Below, piece by piece: positions 118 through 6,032 of a stretch of DNA of 28,654 nucleotides. This DNA comes from a virus. The first letter of the stretch is position 1. Every line of letters begins with the position of its first letter. The position numbers and the translations under genes were made by a program. The notes under the pieces were generated by a model that was not told where the DNA came from, ran no database searches, and saw only the letters and a list, made by a program, of their open reading frames with translations. The DNA is taken from positions 1 through 28,654 of the IMG/VR virus record IMGVR_UViG_3300028377_000042. One strand, written 5' to 3'.

Positions 118-147
118 CGTGTCGTGTAGAAGCACTTCCACGACACG
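118..147. repeat. inverted repeat of the GTGTCGTG motif
   Basis: CGTGTCGTG (118-126) and CACGACACG (139-147) are inverted copies that can form a hairpin of about 12 base pairs. The same 30-nt element recurs at 1807-1836, 3040-3069 and 4177-4206, always between genes. No T-run follows on either strand, so it is not a typical terminator. It may be a protein-binding site or a structured RNA element. Confidence 0.7.
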
Positions 148-202
148 CCTGTAACAAAAAGCAAAATAAATTAATATCTTGCTTTGATTTTGTATGCGCT
201 AT

Positions 203-496
203 CTATTTTAAACAAAACTCATTTAAAAATTTAAGATAAGCCTCTCTTCGGTATGTTTCCTCTATTGTCTCCCAATAGGCGTCGATAATAATTTCCTGTA
301 AATTATGAGGTAGGCCCTCAAAATGTTCTCGCGCCCGTGCAATGGGTAGAATGTACGCTCTACCGGTTGTATGAGGTAGGACGTCCATGTACGCATTCAT
401 ATAAATTACACGGAATACATCCTTATCTTCCACTTCAAAATCATAATCTACTTCTCCGCTTTTACCTGAATAAAAAATGTACTTAATTGTTCGCAT
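203..496 (-). CDS. hypothetical protein, 97 aa
   Basis: Function not recognised. The ATG at 496 has a purine-rich AAGGAAGGG ribosome site about 6 bases upstream, and the gene ends in TAG. The product is a small mixed-charge protein without membrane segments or cysteine motifs; its middle contains an ARAREHFEGLP stretch and its C-terminal half looks helical (AYWETIEETYRREAYLKFL). Its single Trp is TGG. It is read from its own consensus promoter at 527-555, like its neighbours in this cassette region. A small early or host-takeover protein is a guess from context only. Confidence 0.75.
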   Translation of the reverse strand: MRTIKYIFYSGKSGEVDYDFEVEDKDVFRVIYMNAYMDVLPHTTGRAYILPIARAREHFEGLPHNLQEIIIDAYWETIEETYRREAYLKFLNEFCLK

Positions 497-526
497 TATG
501 TACCCTTCCTTTATCTTTCTATACTA

Positions 527-555
527 ATTATAACACATCTTTAAGGTTTTTTCAA
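527..555 (-). promoter_or_regulatory. promoter of the 97-aa gene
   Basis: On the minus strand TTGAAA (555-550), 17 bases, then TATAAT (532-527). The transcribed leader starts TAGTATAGAAAGATAAA, a leader that recurs at other promoters in the first 4.5 kb. Confidence 0.85.
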
Positions 556-578
556 CCCTTTTGAGTAAAAGATTTTAA

Positions 579-806
579 CGTGTCGTGGAAAAGTTTTGAT
601 TTTGCCATTAAATTGATTAAAACCTTGATATTGCCATTAAATTGATTAAAACCTTGATATTGCCATTAAATTGAATAAAACCTTGATATTGCCATTAAAT
701 TGATTAAAACCTTGATATTGCCATCGTATCGTGGAAAAGTTTTGATTTTGCCATTAAATTGAATAAACTTTGATTTTGCCATAAATTAAAACCTCTCCAC
801 GACACG
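579..806. repeat. 29-bp tandem repeats bounded by inverted GTGTCGTG motifs
   Basis: This fills most of the 329-base gap between the genes ending at 496 and 826. A 29-bp unit (TTGATATTGCCATTAAATTG followed by ATTAAAACC, with small variants) repeats head to tail at 596, 625, 654 and 683. Degenerate copies follow to about 793, interrupted by CGTATCGTGGAA (725-736). The block is bounded by CGTGTCGTGGAA (579-590) and TCCACGACACG (796-806). There are no spacers, so it is not CRISPR. Iteron-like repeats of a replication origin or a regulator-binding block are possible; neither is shown. Confidence 0.85.
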
Positions 807-818
807 CTTACTATAAAG

Positions 819-841
819 AAAAAACTTAGTTTAAAACTAAG
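819..841 (-). terminator. rho-independent terminator of the exonuclease gene
   Basis: On the minus strand CTTAGTTTTAAACTAAG (841-825) forms a short hairpin and runs straight into six T (824-819). The stop codon of the exonuclease (828-826) lies inside it. The stem is AT-rich, so efficiency is uncertain. Confidence 0.6.
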
Positions 842-1578
842 CCGTTCCTTGTGTTTTTCATAGAGTGATATTTGAAAGTATAGGTTTTGCCTTTTGCTGT
901 AATTTTAAAACTATTATCAAGTTCAGAAGTAAGGAATAATTTTTTTAATGGTTTGGTTTCATTATAGCCTAACTTTATACACTCATTTAAAATATCAAGT
1001 TCAATGCGGCAATCTTGCAGGCCCATGTGTTGCTCTTTAAACTCCGTTTTGCCTGTAATTGCTTGATAAGTGCACTCCGCGTTAGTTCGCATGTAGCCCT
1101 TTGGTGTTACTTTTTTATGTTTATTTGCAAAGTCTTTATATTGTCTTGTCTTGTGTATGTAGTGAGACGCAATACTTTGAATGTCAATCCAATTTTTAAT
1201 AGGGTTTGCTTTTTTAAAATAATCGCTATTGAAACGCATAACACTTTTATCAAAAGGTGAATTGTAAGCAAAAACAAAATCAATTTTATGCTTTTTTATT
1301 TGAGTCTTAATACGCTGAAAAATGCGCCCTATGTGCTTCCTTTTCATTTTGTGCGCTTTAAGGCTCTGAACGTATAAAGGACGCTTATTTGCATAGTATG
1401 CTGTTTCAAAGAGCATTTTATTATCGTATACTTGTTTAACCGCATAATGCTCACTATCAATTTCTACATATCGCCCGCTTTTTAGTTCCGCAATAATAAA
1501 ACCTATATCGTATGCGTAACGCTTTTCAAGTCCAATTGTTTCAGTATCAAGTACCATGATTTTTTTAGGTAGTAACAT
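826..1578 (-). CDS. DEDDh 3'-5' exonuclease (DnaQ/RNase T-like)
   Basis: A 250-aa exonuclease-fold protein expected to remove 3' nucleotides from DNA or RNA in the cytoplasm. Visible motifs: ExoI VLDTET (D11, E13), ExoII FAYNSPFD (D110), and ExoIII HMGLQD (H184 and D189, the HxxxxD spacing of the DEDDh type). This matches the DnaQ/PolC-epsilon/RNase T superfamily; the length fits a stand-alone nuclease, with about 55 extra residues after ExoIII of unknown role. The ATG at 1578 has AAGGATG about 9 bases upstream. Two promoters lie upstream (1629 and 1716), and a terminator overlaps the stop. Its Trp is TGG. A role in proofreading, nucleotide salvage from host DNA or RNA turnover cannot be told apart from sequence alone. 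Confidence 0.88.
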   Translation of the reverse strand: MLLPKKIMVLDTETIGLEKRYAYDIGFIIAELKSGRYVEIDSEHYAVKQVYDNKMLFETAYYANKRPLYVQSLKAHKMKRKHIGRIFQRIKTQIKKHKIDFVFAYNSPFDKSVMRFNSDYFKKANPIKNWIDIQSIASHYIHKTRQYKDFANKHKKVTPKGYMRTNAECTYQAITGKTEFKEQHMGLQDCRIELDILNECIKLGYNETKPLKKLFLTSELDNSFKITAKGKTYTFKYHSMKNTRNGLVLN

Positions 1579-1628
1579 TAAATATCATCCTTTTAAATTT
1601 TTATGGTTTTGTTTATCTTTCTATACTA

Positions 1629-1657
1629 ATTATAACATGCTCCTGTTTCTTTGTCAA
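1629..1657 (-). promoter_or_regulatory. proximal promoter of the exonuclease gene
   Basis: Minus strand TTGACA (1657-1652), 17 bases, TATAAT (1634-1629): a perfect sigma-70/sigma-A consensus, followed by the leader TAGTATAGAAAGATAAAC. Confidence 0.9.
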
Positions 1658-1715
1658 GCCTTTAAACAATTAATTTTAATTTCTTTTGAGCGCCTTTCTC
1701 TCAACCTCTATACTA

Positions 1716-1762
1716 ATTATAGCATGATATAAGACTTTTTACAATAGGTGAAAACGCTTTCA
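1716..1762 (-). promoter_or_regulatory. distal promoter with an upstream cre-like operator
   Basis: Minus strand TTGTAA (1744-1739), 17 bases, TATAAT (1721-1716). Immediately upstream, TGAAAACGCTTTCA (1749-1762) fits the 14-bp cre consensus TGWNANCGNTNWCA of CcpA, a LacI-family regulator. Near-identical promoter and operator modules recur at 2889-2935 and 4116-4162. A cre upstream of a weak -35 is the arrangement seen where CcpA activates; that it does so here is inference. Confidence 0.7.
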
Positions 1763-1777
1763 TTTTAGGAATAAAAG

Positions 1778-1836
1778 CGTGTCGTGGAGAAGGGTTCACA
1801 TTTAGGCGTGTCGTGGAGAAGCATTTCCACGACACG
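1778..1836. repeat. GTGTCGTG repeat and 30-nt inverted repeat
   Basis: A single CGTGTCGTGGA at 1778-1788 is followed by a complete hairpin at 1807-1836 (CGTGTCGTGG paired with CCACGACACG). It lies between the exonuclease promoters and the next gene's terminator. Confidence 0.75.
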
Positions 1837-1847
1837 GGTAACACGAT

Positions 1848-1870
1848 AAAAAAAAGGGCTTTCGCCCTTT
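1848..1870 (-). terminator. rho-independent terminator of the 101-aa gene
   Basis: On the minus strand AAAGGGC (1870-1864), loop GAAA, GCCCTTT (1859-1853), then a continued T-run to 1848. Classic form, directly after the stop codon at 1876. Confidence 0.9.
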
Positions 1871-1875
1871 AATTA

Positions 1876-2181
1876 TTAATCAAACAATTTGATTTCTTGT
1901 TCTGGTTCCTTATGTTTCATACTTGATTTGGTGCTTTTGTATTCAGGTGCGAGAGTGGTTACACTACCACTGATTTCAAAGTAGATGGGGTCCTCTGTTT
2001 GCTCATCATTTGCGATTTGAATAGCAAGCGTTTTTCTTGCAGTTTCTACAACCTCAAGTCCGGTTGCATTTTCTACGGCGGTTTTTGCCATTTTCATGCT
2101 TTGCTCTTTCATTTTGTTTCTTACGCTCACTTTTGGGTTCCCTTTGACATTTGTAAAATCTACTAGTTTCAAAATAATCAC
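1876..2181 (-). CDS. hypothetical protein, about 100 aa
   Basis: Not recognised. The product is a small soluble protein. Its middle (EQSMKMAKTAVENATGLEVVETARKTLAIQIA, in part) looks helical, and the C-terminus is charged and ends EQEIKLFD. The start is uncertain: GTG at 2181 lies only 2 bases after AAGGA, while an in-frame TTG at 2172 has an 11-base spacing and would start MKLVDFTNVKG. There is no Trp. It has its own promoter (2219-2247) and a strong terminator, one complete cassette of this region. Confidence 0.72.
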   Translation of the reverse strand: MIILKLVDFTNVKGNPKVSVRNKMKEQSMKMAKTAVENATGLEVVETARKTLAIQIANDEQTEDPIYFEISGSVTTLAPEYKSTKSSMKHKEPEQEIKLFD

Positions 2182-2218
2182 TTTCCTTTTCTATATTTTT
2201 TATTTTTGATTATACTTA

Positions 2219-2247
2219 ATTATAACATGCTTTTTGTTACTTGTCAA
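2219..2247 (-). promoter_or_regulatory. promoter of the 101-aa gene
   Basis: Minus strand TTGACA (2247-2242), 17 bases, TATAAT (2224-2219). The TGA inside TTGACA is in frame with the end of the upstream gene, and the TAA in TTATAAT is its next stop, so promoter and gene end overlap. Confidence 0.9.
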
Positions 2248-2678
2248 GAGTTTTTACGATTTTTCCTTCTCAGTCGCATATGTAAATAATCATCCTGTTC
2301 TTTTTCTTTAACTTTTCTTGATTGATTGTAGGCCGATTTGGCGTGTTTTTTACGTTGTTTACGATTTTTCATTTTAAGTTCTTGTTCCTTTGCGTACGCT
2401 TCAGTTTCATGCACTGTATCAAAATCAAATGATTTGATTTTAATATCAATAGTTGCAGGTATAGAGCCCTCATGTGAGTTAGGTAATTCAAGCACGATGC
2501 CTTCCTTGTTCATGCCTACCGCAATCTTCATGTCTTTAAAATCAGCGAGTAAAGCGTTCATGATATCAGTTTTCAATTTACGGTGTTCAGTTTGCTTGAT
2601 TTTTTCGCCTTTTTTAGTTGTAGTAATAGTAAACTTTTTACTCTCTACCTTTTTTAAAATAGTCTTAAAATGCTCCAT
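2220..2678 (-). CDS. hypothetical basic protein, 144 or 152 aa
   Basis: Not recognised. ATG at 2678 follows a strong AAAGGAGG site. The first 100 residues look like a small alpha/beta domain; the tail (about 100-144) is highly basic, rich in Lys and Arg (KMKNRKQRKKHAKSAYNQSR, then MRLRRKNRKNS), suggesting nucleic-acid binding. With the standard code it stops at TGA 2246-2244 inside the next promoter's -35; with TGA as Trp it continues WQVTKSML to TAA at 2222-2220 inside the -10. Both endings are given because the code in use for this region is not settled. Three tandem promoters lie upstream. Confidence 0.75.
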
Positions 2679-2712
2679 TTGTTTTACCTCCTTTTTCTCA
2701 ACCTCTATACTA

Positions 2713-2741
2713 ATTATAACACGATATTAACAATTTGTCAA
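2713..2741 (-). promoter_or_regulatory. promoter 1 of 3 for the basic-protein gene
   Basis: Minus strand TTGACA (2741-2736), 17 bases, TATAAT (2718-2713), followed by the shared leader TAGTATAGAGGTTGAGA. It is the promoter closest to the gene. Confidence 0.88.
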
Positions 2742-2800
2742 TGGTTTTAGTGAATTAATTTTAATTTCTTTTGAGCGCCTTTCTCTCAACCTCTATACTA

Positions 2801-2829
2801 ATTATAACACGATATTAACAAGTTGTCAA
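2801..2829 (-). promoter_or_regulatory. promoter 2 of 3 for the basic-protein gene
   Basis: Minus strand TTGACA (2829-2824), 17 bases, TATAAT (2806-2801). It is an 88-bp tandem duplicate of the promoter at 2713, including leader and downstream spacer. No gene lies between the two copies. Confidence 0.85.
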
Positions 2830-2888
2830 CGGTTTTAGTGAATTAATTTCAATCTCTTTTGAACGCCTTTCTCTCAACCTCTATACTA

Positions 2889-2935
2889 ATTATAGCACGA
2901 TATAAGACTTTTTACAATAGGTGAAAACGCTTTCA
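2889..2935 (-). promoter_or_regulatory. promoter 3 of 3, with cre-like operator
   Basis: Minus strand TTGTAA (2917-2912), 17 bases, TATAAT (2894-2889), with TGAAAACGCTTTCA at 2922-2935 upstream. It is a copy of the 1716-1762 module. A GTGTCGTGGA motif (2951-2960) follows 15 bases further upstream. Confidence 0.7.
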
Positions 2936-2982
2936 TTTAGGAATAAAAGCGTGTCGTGGAACGATTTTTTGTTGCTTTTTTC

Positions 2983-3011
2983 TTGACATTATGATTTGCG
3001 TCTGGTATTTT
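2983..3011 (+). promoter_or_regulatory. plus-strand promoter into a non-coding stretch
   Basis: TTGACA (2983-2988), 17 bases ending in TGG, TATTTT (3006-3011; extended -10). It faces the opposite way to all nearby genes and reads into the GTGTCGTG hairpins at 3040-3097. No plausible gene follows, so a short non-coding transcript is the likely product if the promoter is active. Confidence 0.45.
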
Positions 3012-3039
3012 TTATAAAGATTATAACAAGGCATATAAC

Positions 3040-3097
3040 CGTGTCGTGGAAATGCCCCTCCACGACACACTTAAATATAAACCCTCTCCACGACACG
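3040..3097. repeat. GTGTCGTG inverted repeats
   Basis: CGTGTCGTGGA (3040-3050) pairs with TCCACGACAC (3059-3068). A second inverted copy, TCCACGACACG, sits at 3087-3097. This lies in the long gene-poor stretch 2679-3273, which otherwise holds only promoters and one possible small RNA. Confidence 0.75.
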
Positions 3098-3106
3098 CCT
3101 ATAAAA

Positions 3107-3253
3107 TAAAAAAAAGAGCGGTGGAGGCTCGCATATTCCACGCTTTAAGTTTAATTAAGTCCTTGAACACTCCTTTTAATATAAATGATAGGCGCCTTTG
3201 TACGCATAGGTAGCGCCCTTGAGAGACCTTATAGCGTCTTAGTCTCAACCTTA
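3107..3253 (-). ncRNA. possible short RNA or leader-peptide transcript
   Basis: A perfect promoter at 3260-3288 reads minus into about 145 bases that end in an imperfect hairpin (GTGGA paired with TCCAC, plus a bulged lower stem) and a T-run at 3114-3107. The interval contains only tiny ORFs (18 aa from an ATG without a good ribosome site; about 22 aa from a GTG fused to AGGAGTG). Either a small RNA, a mini-protein or a decayed cassette fits. Confidence 0.35.
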
Positions 3254-3259
3254 CAACTA

Positions 3260-3288
3260 ATTATAACATGCTCCTACTTCTTTGTCAA
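3260..3288 (-). promoter_or_regulatory. promoter of the 3107-3253 transcript
   Basis: Minus strand TTGACA (3288-3283), 17 bases, TATAAT (3265-3260). The -35 overlaps the end of the 26-aa mini-gene. Confidence 0.85.
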
Positions 3289-3354
3289 GCCTTTAAGCAA
3301 TTCTTTTTGTAATTCTTTTGTTACTTTTTGCTTTTTGGCTCTCTTGTCTTTCAA
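3274..3354 (-). CDS. basic mini-protein, 26 aa
   Basis: Too short for usual gene calling. A TTG start at 3354 has AGAGGTG about 6 bases upstream and a consensus promoter at 3411-3439. The product is almost entirely Lys, Glu, Gln and Leu (begins MKDKRAKKQK, ends LKGLTKK) and would form one amphipathic, basic helix. It ends in TAG inside the next promoter. Function unknown. Support is the promoter and ribosome-site arrangement shared with neighbouring cassettes, not homology. Confidence 0.5.
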   Translation of the reverse strand: MKDKRAKKQKVTKELQKELLKGLTKK

Positions 3355-3379
3355 GAAAAACACCTCTTTTTGAATATTA

Positions 3380-3403
3380 AGGTGGCCTACCACAACCACC
3401 TTA
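3380..3403 (-). promoter_or_regulatory. 5' leader hairpin of the mini-gene
   Basis: On the minus strand AAGGTGG and CCACCTT form a 7-bp stem with a 10-nt loop, just after the predicted start of transcription and upstream of the ribosome site. It may stabilise the RNA or affect its translation. Confidence 0.45.
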
Positions 3404-3410
3404 CATATAT

Positions 3411-3439
3411 ATTATAACACAATTATTATTGTTTGTCAA
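3411..3439 (-). promoter_or_regulatory. promoter of the 26-aa mini-gene
   Basis: Minus strand TTGACA (3439-3434), 17 bases, TATAAT (3416-3411): perfect consensus. Confidence 0.88.
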
Positions 3440-3491
3440 ATCTTTTTTTACCGCGTTATAAAGACTATTAGTACTCACATTCTCAAAGTGT

Positions 3492-3707
3492 TTAGATAAA
3501 TATTACCGCCATCGCGATTTGATACATATTACCGCCACCGCGATTTGCTACGATAGTTTGTTCTATGCATTCCCCGCTTTTTTCCGTAACAATAAAAACG
3601 TCGCTGTGCCTTATTGCTCTAATGTAGTCATAGGCGCTTTTAAAATCTTTAAATTCTATTCCAAATTCCGTGGAGCCTTGCTCACTTATTCTGTGTGCTG
3701 TTACCAT
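3492..3707 (-). CDS. hypothetical protein, 71 aa (duplicated gene, copy A)
   Basis: Not recognised. ATG at 3707 is chosen because AAAGGAG lies 9 bases upstream; the ATG at 3716 touches the ribosome site. The sequence begins MVTAHRISEQGSTEFGIEFK and includes an FKSAYDYIRAIRHSDVFIVTEK segment typical of a small alpha/beta fold. It is nearly identical to the neighbouring copy B, and the two differ mainly at their C-termini and in one N-terminal repeat. It has its own perfect promoter at 3739-3767. It ends in TAA. Confidence 0.72.
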   Translation of the reverse strand: MVTAHRISEQGSTEFGIEFKDFKSAYDYIRAIRHSDVFIVTEKSGECIEQTIVANRGGGNMYQIAMAVIFI

Positions 3708-3738
3708 ATCTAACATCTCCTTTTATCTTTCTATACTA

Positions 3739-3767
3739 ATTATAACATGTTCCTGTTTCTTTGTCAA
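3739..3767 (-). promoter_or_regulatory. promoter of copy A
   Basis: Minus strand TTGACA (3767-3762), 17 bases, TATAAT (3744-3739), leader TAGTATAGAAAGATAAAAGG. It overlaps the 3' end of copy B. Confidence 0.9.
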
Positions 3768-3997
3768 ATGTTTTTTATCGCCACCACGATTTGATACATA
3801 TTACCGCCACCGCGATTTGCTACGATAGTTTGTTCTATGCATTTCTCGCTTTTTTCCGTAACAATAAAAATGTCCCTGTGCCTTATTGCTCTAATGTAGT
3901 CATAGGCGCTTTTAAAATCTTTAAATTCTATTCCAAATTCCGTGGAGCCTTGCTCACTTATTCTGTGTGCTGTTACCATACTGTGTGCTGTTACCAT
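3740..3997 (-). CDS. hypothetical protein, 77 or 85 aa (duplicated gene, copy B)
   Basis: A near-copy of the 3492-3707 gene. It starts at ATG 3997 (AAAGGAG 9 bases upstream) and carries a duplicated N-terminus, MVTAHSMVTAH, from an 18-base internal duplication. It differs from copy A by a few residues (for example GECIEQ to EKCIEQ) and at the C-terminus (VVAIKNI). With the standard code it stops at TGA 3766-3764 inside the promoter of copy A; with TGA as Trp it runs WQRNRNML to TAA at 3742-3740. Function unknown. Its promoter is 4029-4057. Confidence 0.7.
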
Positions 3998-4028
3998 ATC
4001 TAACATCTCCTTTTATCTTTCTATACTA

Positions 4029-4057
4029 ATTATAACATGCTCCTGTTTCTTTGTCAA
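4029..4057 (-). promoter_or_regulatory. promoter of copy B
   Basis: Minus strand TTGACA (4057-4052), 17 bases, TATAAT (4034-4029), with the same leader as copy A. Confidence 0.9.
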
Positions 4058-4115
4058 GCCTTTAAACAATTAATTTTAATTTCTTTTGTACCGCTTTCTC
4101 TCAACCTCTATACTA

Positions 4116-4162
4116 ATTATAACACGATATAAGACTTTTTACAATAGGCGAAAACGCTTTCA
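4116..4162 (-). promoter_or_regulatory. second promoter of copy B with degenerate cre-like site
   Basis: Minus strand TTGTAA (4144-4139), 17 bases, TATAAT (4121-4116). Upstream CGAAAACGCTTTCA (4149-4162) differs from the cre consensus only at the first base. Third copy of the 1716-1762 module. Confidence 0.65.
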
Positions 4163-4176
4163 TTTTGAGGAATAAG

Positions 4177-4228
4177 CGTGTCGTGGAAATGCTCCTCCAC
4201 GATACGATAACACAAAGCGTGTCGTGGA
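4177..4228. repeat. GTGTCGTG repeats
   Basis: CGTGTCGTGGA (4177-4187) is inverted-repeated as TCCACGATACG (4196-4206), and another CGTGTCGTGGA lies at 4218-4228, just before the terminator of the next gene. Confidence 0.75.
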
Positions 4229-4234
4229 GCAAAC

Positions 4235-4264
4235 AAAAAAAGACACTTGGCTATACCAAGTGTC
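4235..4264 (-). terminator. rho-independent terminator of the 50-aa gene
   Basis: On the minus strand GACACTTGG (4264-4256), loop TATAG, CCAAGTGTC (4250-4242), then seven T (4241-4235). The stop codon (4253-4251) sits in the loop. Confidence 0.93.
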
Positions 4265-4403
4265 CGTATTTTTCTTCGAGTTTTTCAAGAGCTTTGCGGT
4301 GTCTATCAGCCCTAATACAGTCGCGCCCTTTGGCGTTTTCGTACGCGTTTTTCCTGAGCCTAATAATTACTTTCCAGTTTTCTTTAGTTCTTTTCATTTC
4401 CAT
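4251..4403 (-). CDS. hypothetical basic protein, 50 aa
   Basis: A short gene with full expression signals: promoters at 4452-4480 and 4527-4555, AGGAG 10 bases before ATG 4403, and a strong terminator overlapping its TAG stop. The product starts MEMKRTKENWKVIIRLRKNA and ends KALEKLEEKYGHLV. It is basic and probably all helical, with one TGG Trp. No family recognised. Small size and basic charge fit an early phage protein that binds a host factor or nucleic acid, but this is only a suggestion. Confidence 0.75.
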   Translation of the reverse strand: MEMKRTKENWKVIIRLRKNAYENAKGRDCIRADRHRKALEKLEEKYGHLV

Positions 4404-4451
4404 GTGTAAATCACTCCTATAGATTTTTTGGTTTCTTTATCTTATATACAT

Positions 4452-4480
4452 ATTATAACACGCAATCAATGGTATGTCAA
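4452..4480 (-). promoter_or_regulatory. promoter of the 50-aa gene
   Basis: Minus strand TTGACA (4480-4475), 17 bases, TATAAT (4457-4452): perfect consensus. Confidence 0.9.
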
Positions 4481-4526
4481 CACTTAAATTAATTTAATTT
4501 TTTGGCTCCTTTATCTTTCTAACTTA

Positions 4527-4555
4527 ATTATAACACGTAATCAATGGTATGTCAA
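4527..4555 (-). promoter_or_regulatory. upstream duplicate promoter of the 50-aa gene
   Basis: Minus strand TTGACA (4555-4550), 17 bases, TATAAT (4532-4527). It is a 75-bp tandem copy of the 4452 promoter. Its leader keeps an AAAGGAG that is followed by no gene, so this looks like a cassette promoter duplicated without its gene. Confidence 0.85.
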
Positions 4556-4590
4556 CACTTAAATTAATTTAATTTTTCTTTGCTTTTTCC

Positions 4591-4619
4591 TTGACAAAGT
4601 ATATAATCTGTGGTATAAC
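4591..4619 (+). promoter_or_regulatory. plus-strand promoter facing the operator array
   Basis: TTGACA (4591-4596), 17 bases ending in TGG, TATAAC (4614-4619; extended -10). It points straight into the array that begins 34 bases downstream. No gene follows for about 5 kb on this strand, so it would make an untranslated RNA across the array, or keep the array open. The upstream TTTGCTTTTTCC context resembles the promoter at 2983. Confidence 0.6.
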
Positions 4620-4652
4620 GATACCTCTATAACACAGGTTACACATTATATA

Positions 4653-5318
4653 TGTAAACGCTTACATACCCTGCTCATGTAAACGCTTACATACCTGCAC
4701 GACACACTATAATGTAAACGCTTACATACCCTGCTCATGTAAACGCTTACATACCTGCACGACACATCATAATGTAAACGCTTACACGGCACACATCATA
4801 ATGTAAACGCTTACATACCTGCACGACACACTATAATGTAACCGCTTACATAACATACTATAATGTAACCGCTTACATAACATACTATAATGTAAACGCT
4901 TACATAACATACTATAATGTAAACGCTTACATAACACACTATAATGTAACCGCTTACATACCTGCACGACACTATAATGTAACCGCTTACACGGCACACA
5001 TCATAATGTAACCGCTTACATACCTGCACGACACACTATAATGTAAACGCTTACATACCCTGCTCATGTAAACGCTTACATACCTGCACGACACATCATA
5101 ATGTAAACGCTTACACGGCACACATCATAATGTAACCGCTTACATACCTGCACGACACACTACAATGTAACCGCTTACACGGCACACATTATAATGTGAG
5201 CGCTTACATAACACACTATAATGTAACCGCTTACACGGCACACATTATAATGTAACCGCTTACATAACACACTACAATGTAACCGCTTACATAACACACT
5301 ATAATGTAACCGCTTACA
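4653..5318. repeat. array of 23 cre/LacI-type operator palindromes
   Basis: Twenty-three copies of a 14-bp pseudo-palindrome start at 4653, 4678, 4713, 4738, 4773, 4802, 4837, 4864, 4891, 4918, 4945, 4978, 5007, 5042, 5067, 5102, 5131, 5166, 5195, 5222, 5251, 5278 and 5305. Twenty-two read TGTAANCGCTTACA (11 with A, 11 with C at position 6); one (5195) reads TGTGAGCGCTTACA. All fit the cre consensus TGWNANCGNTNWCA. Spacings are 25, 27, 29, 33 or 35 bp. Linkers fall into four types, one carrying GCACGACACA, which shares the core of the dispersed GTGTCGTG motif. Blocks of the array are themselves duplicated (offset 329). It is not coding and not CRISPR (repeats too short, linkers repeated). Candidate roles: regulator sponge, iteron origin or centromere-like site. 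Confidence 0.93.
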
Positions 5319-5451: not shown

Positions 5452-5478
5452 AAAAAAAATAAGGCTTACGCCTTATTT
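5452..5478 (-). terminator. rho-independent terminator of the 188-aa gene
   Basis: On the minus strand AAATAAGGC (5478-5470), loop GTAA, GCCTTATTT (5465-5457), with the T-run continuing to 5452. The TAA stop lies in the loop. Confidence 0.93.
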
Positions 5479-6032
5479 AGTTTTTTAGTGATATAGTGAG
5501 GCTTTAAATTATTTTCCACAATCAATTTTTTAACAAGTCCCAATGTCAATTGCATTCCGTTGCGTCTACTCTTTTTCATCCGGCCAACGCTATCAATTAC
5601 AATTTGTTTTTTCAAGTAATAAACTTTTTTATCCGGTAGTGCTATAAGAACACCGCTAATTTTGCTTATATCATGCCAACCGTTAGGGTATGAGTTATAA
5701 CATGTAAATGCTTTGATTTCGTTGTAACTCATCTTATCGAGGTCTTTTTCAAAAGGGCTTGAGTAGTCTACTACTTTACCACCGTTTAATTGAGATTTTA
5801 TAACGCACTCAACTAAGTCACCGACGTTTTTTGAACCGTTGCGGGTTAGGCGGATGCCCAATCGGTTAATTCTTGGTAGTGTTCTAAGATAAGCAAGTGC
5901 GGTGTTTACTCTCATGATAGCGTTACGGTTCCGTGGTTTGCGTTGTTTTTGTTGTTCAAGTTCGGTAATAAAGTCAATCTCTAATTTTGCAATAGTACCA
6001 TACTCAACTTGTTTCGTGGTAGTGTGTTTCAT
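5466..6032 (-). CDS. hypothetical protein, 188 aa
   Basis: The largest unknown gene of the cassette region. ATG 6032 is preceded by AAAGGGATGAT with suitable spacing; promoter 6090-6117. The product is basic (many Lys and Arg), with an N-terminal helical part (ELEQQKQRKPRNRNAIMRVN), a central segment containing NGSKNVGDLVECVIKSQLNGG and a Tyr- and Lys-rich C-terminal half (NGWHDISKISGVLIALPDKK). No family is recognised with confidence; a nucleic-acid-related role is plausible from charge. It sits alone beside the operator array, so a link to it (for example an array-binding protein) is worth considering, though no helix-turn-helix can be named. Trp is TGG. Confidence 0.8.
   Translation of the reverse strand: MKHTTTKQVEYGTIAKLEIDFITELEQQKQRKPRNRNAIMRVNTALAYLRTLPRINRLGIRLTRNGSKNVGDLVECVIKSQLNGGKVVDYSSPFEKDLDKMSYNEIKAFTCYNSYPNGWHDISKISGVLIALPDKKVYYLKKQIVIDSVGRMKKSRRNGMQLTLGLVKKLIVENNLKPHYITKKLNKA

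What the first reader, a model, noticed from the sequence alone, without database searches (positions are those of the whole stretch)
4653..5318. Array of 23 CcpA/LacI-type operators: a candidate regulator sponge
Every copy fits the 14-bp cre consensus TGWNANCGNTNWCA, which is expected about once per 250 kb per strand by chance. No gene overlaps the array. Twenty-three high-affinity sites on a multicopy phage genome could titrate a host LacI-family regulator such as CcpA and disturb catabolite control, or recruit a phage factor for replication or partition. I know of no described phage array of this kind.
Basis: partly seen in the sequence, partly recalled or inferred. Interest (0 to 1): 0.88.

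Follow-up and report, generated by a model that had tools for sequence, protein, structure and literature searches.

The report
Phage array of host-regulator operators
A phage carries 23 tandem copies of a DNA switch that a host metabolic regulator should bind, and related phages carry clusters of switches for other host regulators at the same place, which suggests, without yet proving, that these phages soak up or recruit host regulators with DNA alone.

Summary
In detail: 23 tandem LacI/CcpA-type operators at 4653-5318 (about 0.1 expected), in noncoding DNA. A near-identical strain has 12; all 35 units keep the operator while spacers vary. Relatives L010, L008 and L041 have 4, 6 and at least 2 identical operators with unrelated spacers, 3-6 kb upstream of the terminase. 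Of 12 virus records picked for clustered operators, 10 carry a terminase of this clade of large Firmicutes siphophages (two nearly identical); none of 24 records tested has a LacI-domain match over cut-off. Single operators often lie upstream of early promoters. Other clade members carry Rex-type or LexA-type operators there: 48 virus stretches with tandem Rex sites (reversed control 1), one a 24-bp-period array; in the 16 where terminase is visible, all 78 Rex sites lie upstream of it. Rex and LexA sites avoid core promoters. Best reading: a decoy or recruitment array for a host LacI-family regulator, probably CcpA, within a clade-wide but not universal use of interchangeable host-regulator operators. 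Sponge action is inferred; upstream activation and an unknown phage reader remain open. The host is unknown and no binding was tested.

The parts
4653..5318 (.). tandem array of 23 LacI/CcpA-type 14-bp operators (TGTAANCGCTTACA, one TGTGAGCGCTTACA), spacings 25-35 bp, not helically phased
1749..1762 (-). promoter-proximal cre-type operator, centre about -46 of a leftward TTGTAA-17-TATAAT promoter
2922..2935 (-). promoter-proximal cre-type operator, centre about -46 of a leftward TTGTAA-17-TATAAT promoter
4149..4162 (-). third copy of that element with one mismatch to the consensus (CGAAAACGCTTTCA), upstream of a leftward TTGTAA/TATAAT promoter
   Evidence: read in the sequence, promoter
4527..4555 (-). 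leftward consensus promoter TTGACA-17-TATAAT next to the array; nearest operator centre about -139
4452..4480 (-). second leftward consensus promoter in tandem (75-bp repeat)
4591..4619 (+). rightward promoter-like TTGACA-17-TATAAC that would transcribe into the array; also in L011, none seen by eye upstream of the array in L010
   Evidence: read in the sequence; not listed by the scan
5457..5478 (.). terminator-like hairpin between the array and the gene at 5466-6032, listed on both strands
5466..6032 (-). gene next to the array, 188 aa, unknown family; homologues next to the arrays of L010 and L008, weaker matches in G012 and G013, none in the 16 other records searched, fragments included

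Best explanation
The array is a cluster of binding sites for a host LacI/GalR-family global regulator, most probably CcpA (active with HPr-Ser-P). It lies in the early control region of a large Firmicutes siphophage whose late genes read TGA as Trp. The array itself most likely works as a decoy: it holds many regulator dimers away from any core promoter, and once the phage genome has multiplied it lowers free regulator and loosens host carbon control. Single cre sites upstream of early promoters in the same phages may also let the regulator activate them. In other members of the clade the same region carries Rex-type or LexA-type operators, so the general rule would be host-regulator decoys or recruiters of interchangeable specificity. 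Shown here: the array, its recurrence and position, the operator type, absence of a LacI-domain match, avoidance of core promoters by Rex- and LexA-type sites. Inferred: that host CcpA binds, that titration happens, and that it helps the phage.
For: 23 sites against 0.11 expected. Strain L011 has 12 in the same place; 35 of 35 units keep the consensus, with changes only at positions 3, 4 and 6, which the cre consensus leaves free. L010 (TerL 56% identical), L008 and L041 carry 4, 6 and 2 full operators (a further one in L041 is cut by the contig start) with unrelated spacers and periods of 27, 24 and 91 bp, 4.9, 5.8 and 3.0 kb upstream of TerL. 10 of 12 records found through cre pairs have a clade TerL (L028 and L030 share the same sites). 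No PF00356 match over cut-off in 24 records, several of 118-165 kb, others fragments. The array is not helically phased (R 0.06-0.20), as expected of independent binding. Tandem Rex-type operators: 48 virus stretches against 1 for the reversed pattern; all 78 Rex sites upstream of TerL in the 16 stretches that show it; L070 has a 24-bp-period Rex array, 8 exact sites. GAACN4GTTC 129 against 8 for the control in 66 stretches. Rex and LexA are repressors in hosts (established knowledge), yet 2 of 228 and 0 of 99 sites overlap a core promoter (shifted means 17.8 and 9.6).
Against: Host and regulator are unknown and no binding was tested. Many single cre sites lie at activating positions (29 of 95 site-promoter pairs at -70..-42), which suits recruitment better than a sponge. 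Before replication 23 sites are few against the CcpA pool (recalled: thousands of molecules per cell). The feature is not universal in the clade: by TGWAANCGNTTWCA, E3, Sundance, phiL47, PMBT69, FADO, phAss-1, G018 and the 12-kb MT836163 have no site, and KKP_3916, vB_BcoS-136, G019, G020, G021 and G022 have one each. For cre the depletion at core promoters is weak (2 against 7.1, some shifts reach 0) and downstream sites are not depleted (22 against 15.3). Counted as site-promoter pairs over 48 Rex stretches, upstream excess was within the range of the shifts (60, shifted mean 42.0, maximum 64). A tentative winged-helix-like phage protein occurs in 7 of 29 records, six of them with cre clusters. 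Array units are recent duplicates, so their uniformity overstates selection.
Confidence: 0.5

Rival explanations
1. Upstream activation: the host LacI-family regulator (CcpA) is recruited to activate early phage promoters and the array raises its local concentration; titration is a by-product.
For: cre centres at -54 (11 times), -64 (4), -46 (4), -67 (2); 29 of 95 pairs at -70..-42 against 7 in the mirror window and a shifted mean of 9.05, maximum 23 in 2000 shifts. The three window copies sit next to weak TTGTAA -35 boxes while eleven other leftward promoters are 12/12 consensus. cre upstream of -35 activates ackA, pta and ilvB in B. subtilis (PMC3463425, passages read).
Against: The array starts at -139 from a promoter that is already perfect consensus and is not phased. 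15 of the 29 pairs come from one contig with paralogous cassettes (G005). In E. faecium phage H1 the sites lie at other distances, such as -77, -92, -136 and -167. Rex- and LexA-type sites lie upstream too, and those proteins are repressors.
Confidence: 0.22
2. A phage-encoded protein that is not of the LacI family, such as the small winged-helix-like protein seen in several relatives, binds the sites as an early or late switch.
For: That family (alignment A4; winged-helix only by Pfam matches below cut-off) is in 7 of 29 records: G004, G005, G010, G012, G013, G001 and G022, the first six with cre clusters; in G005 and G010 its genes lie among the cre sites. L033 (G015, 60 kb, no TerL match) has 16 identical TGAAAACGTTTTCA spread over its contig, as a phage repressor system might.
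Against: No match in E. faecium phage H1 (138 kb, 5 cre), G008 or G014. In the two strain arrays variation falls only at positions the CcpA consensus leaves free. Other clade members carry operators that match Rex and LexA, which one phage protein family would not explain.
Confidence: 0.17
3. The array is a replication origin or partition site (iterons) read by a phage Rep or ParB-like protein.
For: Tandem repeats at a conserved place; a gene of unknown family lies beside the array in 3 phages.
Against: Skew minimum at about 9-9.5 kb, not at the array; sites dispersed over 6-9 kb in G005, G012 and H1; the neighbour gene is found in 5 of 21 records and not in H1.
Confidence: 0.07
4. The array acts as RNA: a noncoding transcript from the 4591-4619 promoter carries 23 small hairpins.
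For: Promoter-like site upstream (read by eye) and a terminator-like hairpin downstream; every window unit can form a 5-bp stem, one with a G-U pair.
Against: L011 units TGAAAGCGCTTACA and TGAGAACGCTTACA break the stem but keep the DNA operator; the promoter is not seen at L010; Rfam gives no match up to E = 1.
Confidence: 0.04

Closest known systems
CcpA catabolite responsive elements (cre), Bacillus subtilis
   Same: 14-bp consensus, central CpG, degeneracy at the same positions; single sites upstream of -35 as at ackA and pta (PMC3463425, passages read)
   Different: here on a phage, up to 23 in tandem, more palindromic than host sites, most units far from a promoter; binding not shown
Stoperators of Cluster A mycobacteriophages (L5, TipsytheTRex)
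   Same: more than twenty copies of one regulator site on a phage genome, many in short intergenic spaces (PMC9283540, passages read)
   Different: those are asymmetric 13-mers bound by a phage-encoded monomeric repressor and spread over the genome; here palindromes in a tandem array, no LacI-domain match found
DNA titration loci such as E. coli datA (DnaA) or P1 incA (RepA) (recalled, not searched)
   Same: clustered binding sites that lower a free regulator
   Different: those serve replication control; here the likely target is a host metabolic regulator and the carrier a phage
Phage promoters under host LexA, e.g. CTXphi, GIL01 (recalled)
   Same: a phage uses operators of a host global regulator
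   Different: those operators repress a promoter; here sites are many and lie mostly off the core promoters

Membership tests
CcpA cre element | sequence fits TGWNANCGNTNWCA | tested here: met
   23 of 23 in the array, 12 of 12 in L011
CcpA cre element | bound by CcpA with HPr-Ser-P | not testable with these tools
   host unknown, no binding data
CcpA cre element | placed to regulate a promoter | tested here: inconclusive
   three single sites at about -46 in the window; array nearest -139
Phage repressor/stoperator system | phage encodes the cognate repressor | tested here: inconclusive
   no LacI-family gene: no PF00356 over cut-off in 24 records; a repressor of another family is not excluded
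Phage repressor/stoperator system | asymmetric sites oriented with transcription | tested here: not met
   near-perfect palindromes
Iteron origin | initiator gene beside the repeats and an origin signature | tested here: inconclusive
   no skew inflection at the array; neighbour gene of unknown fold, model pLDDT 49.6
Regulator sponge (titration locus) | many consensus sites per genome | tested here: met
   recurrence in relatives
Regulator sponge (titration locus) | lowers free regulator and changes its regulon | not testable with these tools
   needs an experiment
CRISPR array | constant repeats with unique spacers of similar length | tested here: not met
   14-bp repeats, 11-21 bp recurring spacers

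The most novel reading that the evidence does not exclude
A clade of large Firmicutes siphophages carries, just upstream of its packaging genes, DNA decoy arrays of interchangeable specificity for host global regulators (CcpA for carbon, Rex for NADH/NAD+, LexA for DNA damage). They reprogramme host metabolism and stress responses by titration, without encoding any protein for it; the window's 23-unit array is the longest tandem array found here.
Probability: 0.38. Interest if true: 0.95.

Novelty: categorically new. Interest (0 to 1): 0.85.

Why it matters
Phages are known to rewire hosts with proteins and RNAs. A DNA-only device that binds host carbon, redox and SOS regulators, kept at one genomic place while its specificity changes, would be a new layer of host takeover and would tie infection to host physiology. 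It is directly testable in B. subtilis with plasmids. It would also mean that the strong early promoters of these phages are read together with host regulators.

Tried and rejected
Origin of replication at the array: skew minimum lies near 9-9.5 kb. Noncoding RNA: Rfam none; unit variants break the stem. CRISPR: repeat and spacer lengths do not fit. The neighbour gene as reader: matched in 5 of 21 records only; its AlphaFold model is too poor (pLDDT 49.6), so no fold search was made; PHROGs and Pfam give nothing over threshold. DNA relatives in the phage collection: none for window bases 1-25000 or for the array; protein search with the neighbour gene: none. Literature: ten searches of the PMC library; among the rows listed, which for searches are only part of the hits, no title or abstract start describes cre or Rex operator arrays in phages. 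I judged by those listings and read passages of four papers and of a fifth for the Rex motif. Subscription papers and preprints are not covered.

Rows dropped before counts: one search used 11 stretches, left out the 23 array sites, added the one-mismatch site at 4149 by hand, and did not include L011, L033, L005, L012 or the duplicates L028 and L039. The phased windows in that call were chosen, so I rely on the -70..-42 against mirror comparison. One search left out the window, L011, L033 and L107, L100 and L098, taken as near-duplicates from their site spacings; other near-duplicates may remain. Its LexA set of 10 stretches was chosen for having many boxes and omits L092 (9 boxes), L034 and L005 (2 each) and stretches with fewer than two; one search used 11 (L098 included). 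The 16 stretches with TerL include the similar pairs L090/L107 and L084/L100. In one search L033 sites show no promoter preference. L006/L007 were not searched for TerL. L046, L048 and L017 have over 5 kb upstream of TerL and no cre or Rex site in the stretch.

Full report
What is there. The window is a 28,654-base virus record. The likely genes at 0.2-9.4 kb run leftward; packaging and structural genes at 9.7-28.6 kb run rightward and carry in-frame TGA read as Trp, as do leftward genes at 7.6-9.4 kb, while early gene 2244-2678 ends in TGA at a promoter. In the leftward region there are ten promoters with 12 of 12 consensus positions and 17-bp spacing, and one more with a 16-bp spacer. Between two leftward transcription units lie 23 TGTAANCGCTTACA-like operators at 4653-5318; chance gives 0.11.

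Selection on the units. L011 is a near-identical strain (TerL 100% identical) with 12 units. Over both arrays, 35 of 35 units keep the consensus and no gap in the spacing (25-35 bp) suggests a decayed unit; only positions 3, 4 and 6 vary, and spacers vary in length and sequence. Recent duplication explains part of this. Two L011 units would break an RNA stem but keep the DNA operator, so DNA is the likely active form. Spacings are not multiples of the helical turn (R 0.06-0.20, p 0.38-0.92).

Recurrence. A scan of the viral collection for two such operators 5-35 bp apart gave 8 stretches; a scan for the wider cre type gave 10, two of them already found and two from one contig. Of 12 records from these scans searched for terminase, 10 have a relative of the window's (L028 and L030 share the same sites and are not independent); the two without are L033 and L034. 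L006 and L007 were not in that search, and L011 was known to have it. In the 10 records the operator clusters lie upstream of TerL, about 3-10 kb. Strays: one wider-consensus site in G004 about 45 kb away, one in G014 about 19 kb upstream that directly abuts a Rex-type site, and one at the far end of G008. For G013 the sites are at 115-116 kb and TerL at 4.8 kb of 118,402, so the position holds if the genome is circular, which I infer. L010 (TerL 56% identical), L008 and L041 have tandem TGTAAGCGCTTACA with different spacers; in L041 two are complete and one is cut by the contig start. Sampling by TerL instead of operator gave 20 loci; cre clusters are seen in L010, L011, L039, L045 and L041; L043 and L044, a near-identical pair, have one cre site each and four Rex-type sites; L046, L048 and L017 show neither. 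Most of the others are short upstream of TerL. By protein comparison the best-matching phages in the annotated collection include Geobacillus E3, Alicyclobacillus KKP_3916, Brevibacillus Sundance, Enterococcus VRE9_4 and H1, Bacillus FADO, Lactococcus phiL47 and human-gut phAss-1, all below 60% identity. E. faecium phage H1 has 5 cre sites (TGWAANCGNTTWCA), all within 9.4 kb of its early region, 6.5-15.9 kb upstream of TerL, and none elsewhere in 138 kb. E3, Sundance, phiL47, PMBT69, FADO, phAss-1, G018 and the 12-kb MT836163 have none; KKP_3916, vB_BcoS-136, G019, G020, G021 and G022 have one each. So the feature is recurrent, not universal. VRE9_4 was not scanned for cre.

Who binds. PF00356 (LacI helix-turn-helix) has no match over cut-off in 24 distinct records (10, 7, 7); the same search rings in 9 of 14 control genomes. 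One half-domain match below cut-off is in G008. Several of these records are 118-165 kb long, so absence there means more than in fragments. The cultured relatives infect Firmicutes, where CcpA is the usual LacI-family global regulator (established knowledge). Two phage-encoded candidates were checked: the gene beside the array (5 of 21 records) and a small winged-helix-like protein, named so only on sub-threshold Pfam matches (7 of 29). Neither is found in phage H1. Such readers are not excluded for the window, which is a fragment.

Where the sites sit. Against promoters of at least 10 of 12 matches in 11 stretches, 29 of 95 site-promoter pairs within 130 bp lie at -70..-42, 7 in the mirror window; shifting the sites gives mean 9.05, maximum 23. 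Exact centres pile up at -54 (11), -64 (4), -46 (4) and -67 (2). 15 of the 29 come from one contig, G005, and 3 from repeated cassettes of the window. B. subtilis genes with cre upstream of -35 (ackA, pta, ilvB) are activated by CcpA (PMC3463425, passages). So single sites may activate. Phage H1 does not show these positions. The array is farther away (-139 and beyond) from a promoter that needs no help.

The wider pattern. In H1 and L012 I noticed Rex-type operators among the cre sites. TTGTTAANNNNTTAACAA is given as the typical Rex motif of Clostridiaceae (PMC9600882, passages). Of 27 records, 6 hold TTGTKAAN4TTMACAA and none the reversed control. None of 16 records has a match to the Rex DNA-binding domain PF06971. 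A scan for tandem pairs gave 48 virus stretches, the reversed pattern 1. In the 16 of 50 stretches searched (48 Rex plus 2 cre) in which a clade terminase is visible, all 78 Rex sites are 2.6-12.2 kb upstream of it; two pairs of these stretches look alike. L070 has a 24-bp-period array of TTGTTAATTTATTAACAA-type sites, 8 exact, the Rex counterpart of the window's array. The SOS-type box GAACN4GTTC (LexA/DinR consensus recalled) occurs 129 times against 8 for its control in 66 stretches. L068 packs 9 Rex and 5 SOS-type boxes into about 0.65 kb where the longest ATG-started frames are under 75 aa. Against promoters of at least 11 of 12 matches, sites that overlap the core (-40..+20) are 2 of 99 (cre), 2 of 228 (Rex) and 0 of 99 (LexA), with shifted means 7.1, 17.8 and 9.6; upstream (-160..-40) they are 39, 58 and 43 against 13.5, 33.3 and 18.2; downstream 22, 24 and 10 against 15.3, 38.7 and 21.3; within mechanical ORFs 36, 51 and 40 against 65.6, 164.1 and 68.2. 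For cre the core depletion is weak, since some shifts reach 0. Counted as site-promoter pairs over all 48 Rex stretches, no site lies at -30..+10 (shifted mean 13.7), but the upstream excess (60) stays inside the range of the shifts (mean 42.0, maximum 64). Rex and LexA are repressors in hosts (established knowledge), so operators that are many, near consensus and clear of the core promoter look like decoys, or like a recruitment that is new for these proteins.

Judgement. The array is most likely bound by a host LacI-family regulator, probably CcpA (about 0.7), and its main effect is most likely titration or holding of that regulator on the phage genome (0.5 for the full reading). Activation of early promoters is the main rival (0.22) and the two can both be true. 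The host, the binding and the effect are open.

Noticed in passing
L070 944-1153; L068 384-954; 48 stretches: Tandem and clustered Rex-type operators (TTGTKAAN4TTMACAA) in virus stretches, 16 of them with a clade terminase, including one 24-bp-period array.
   Followed up: partly
L063, L065, L073, L074, L079, L088, L091, L092, L097-L099: 7-16 SOS/LexA-type boxes (GAACN4GTTC, often CGAACATATGTTCG) per stretch, a number of them about 30-40 bp from a Rex-type site.
   Followed up: partly
window 119-5158: GTGTCGTGGA and its inverse recur (22 within one mismatch, 0.32 expected), in places as inverted pairs between early genes; seven one-mismatch copies lie in the array spacers.
   Followed up: no
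window 7574-28654: Late genes need TGA=Trp (10 in-frame TGA in the tape-measure frame), as do leftward genes at 7.6-9.4 kb, while early genes below 6 kb do not: a stop-codon-recoded phage.
   Followed up: partly
window 596-787: AT-rich tandem repeat of 29 bp, 6.7 copies.
   Followed up: no
window 3492-3716 and 3764-4006: Two very similar small early genes in tandem, each with its own consensus promoter.
   Followed up: no
L005, L012, L062: Other repeated palindromes of unknown reader: ACTTTAATGNATTAAAGT-like (6 in L005), TTAGTTTGACAAACTAA-like (4 in L012), ATAACANNTGTTAT (4 in phage H1).
   Followed up: no
L033 (G015, 60 kb): 16 identical TGAAAACGTTTTCA spread every 3-4 kb on average over the contig, like a phage repressor system.
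   Followed up: no
L019-L026: Runs of 3-7 LacI-type operators in bacterial contigs: 21-bp period on three contigs of one Cytophagia MAG, others in two Bacillus-type genomes and three Asticcacaulis.
   Followed up: no
L009 715-2500, L031 406-663, L027 6212-8045, L008 6913-7173: Family of about 82-aa winged-helix-like proteins, several paralogues per phage, lying among cre sites in G005 and G010.
   Followed up: partly
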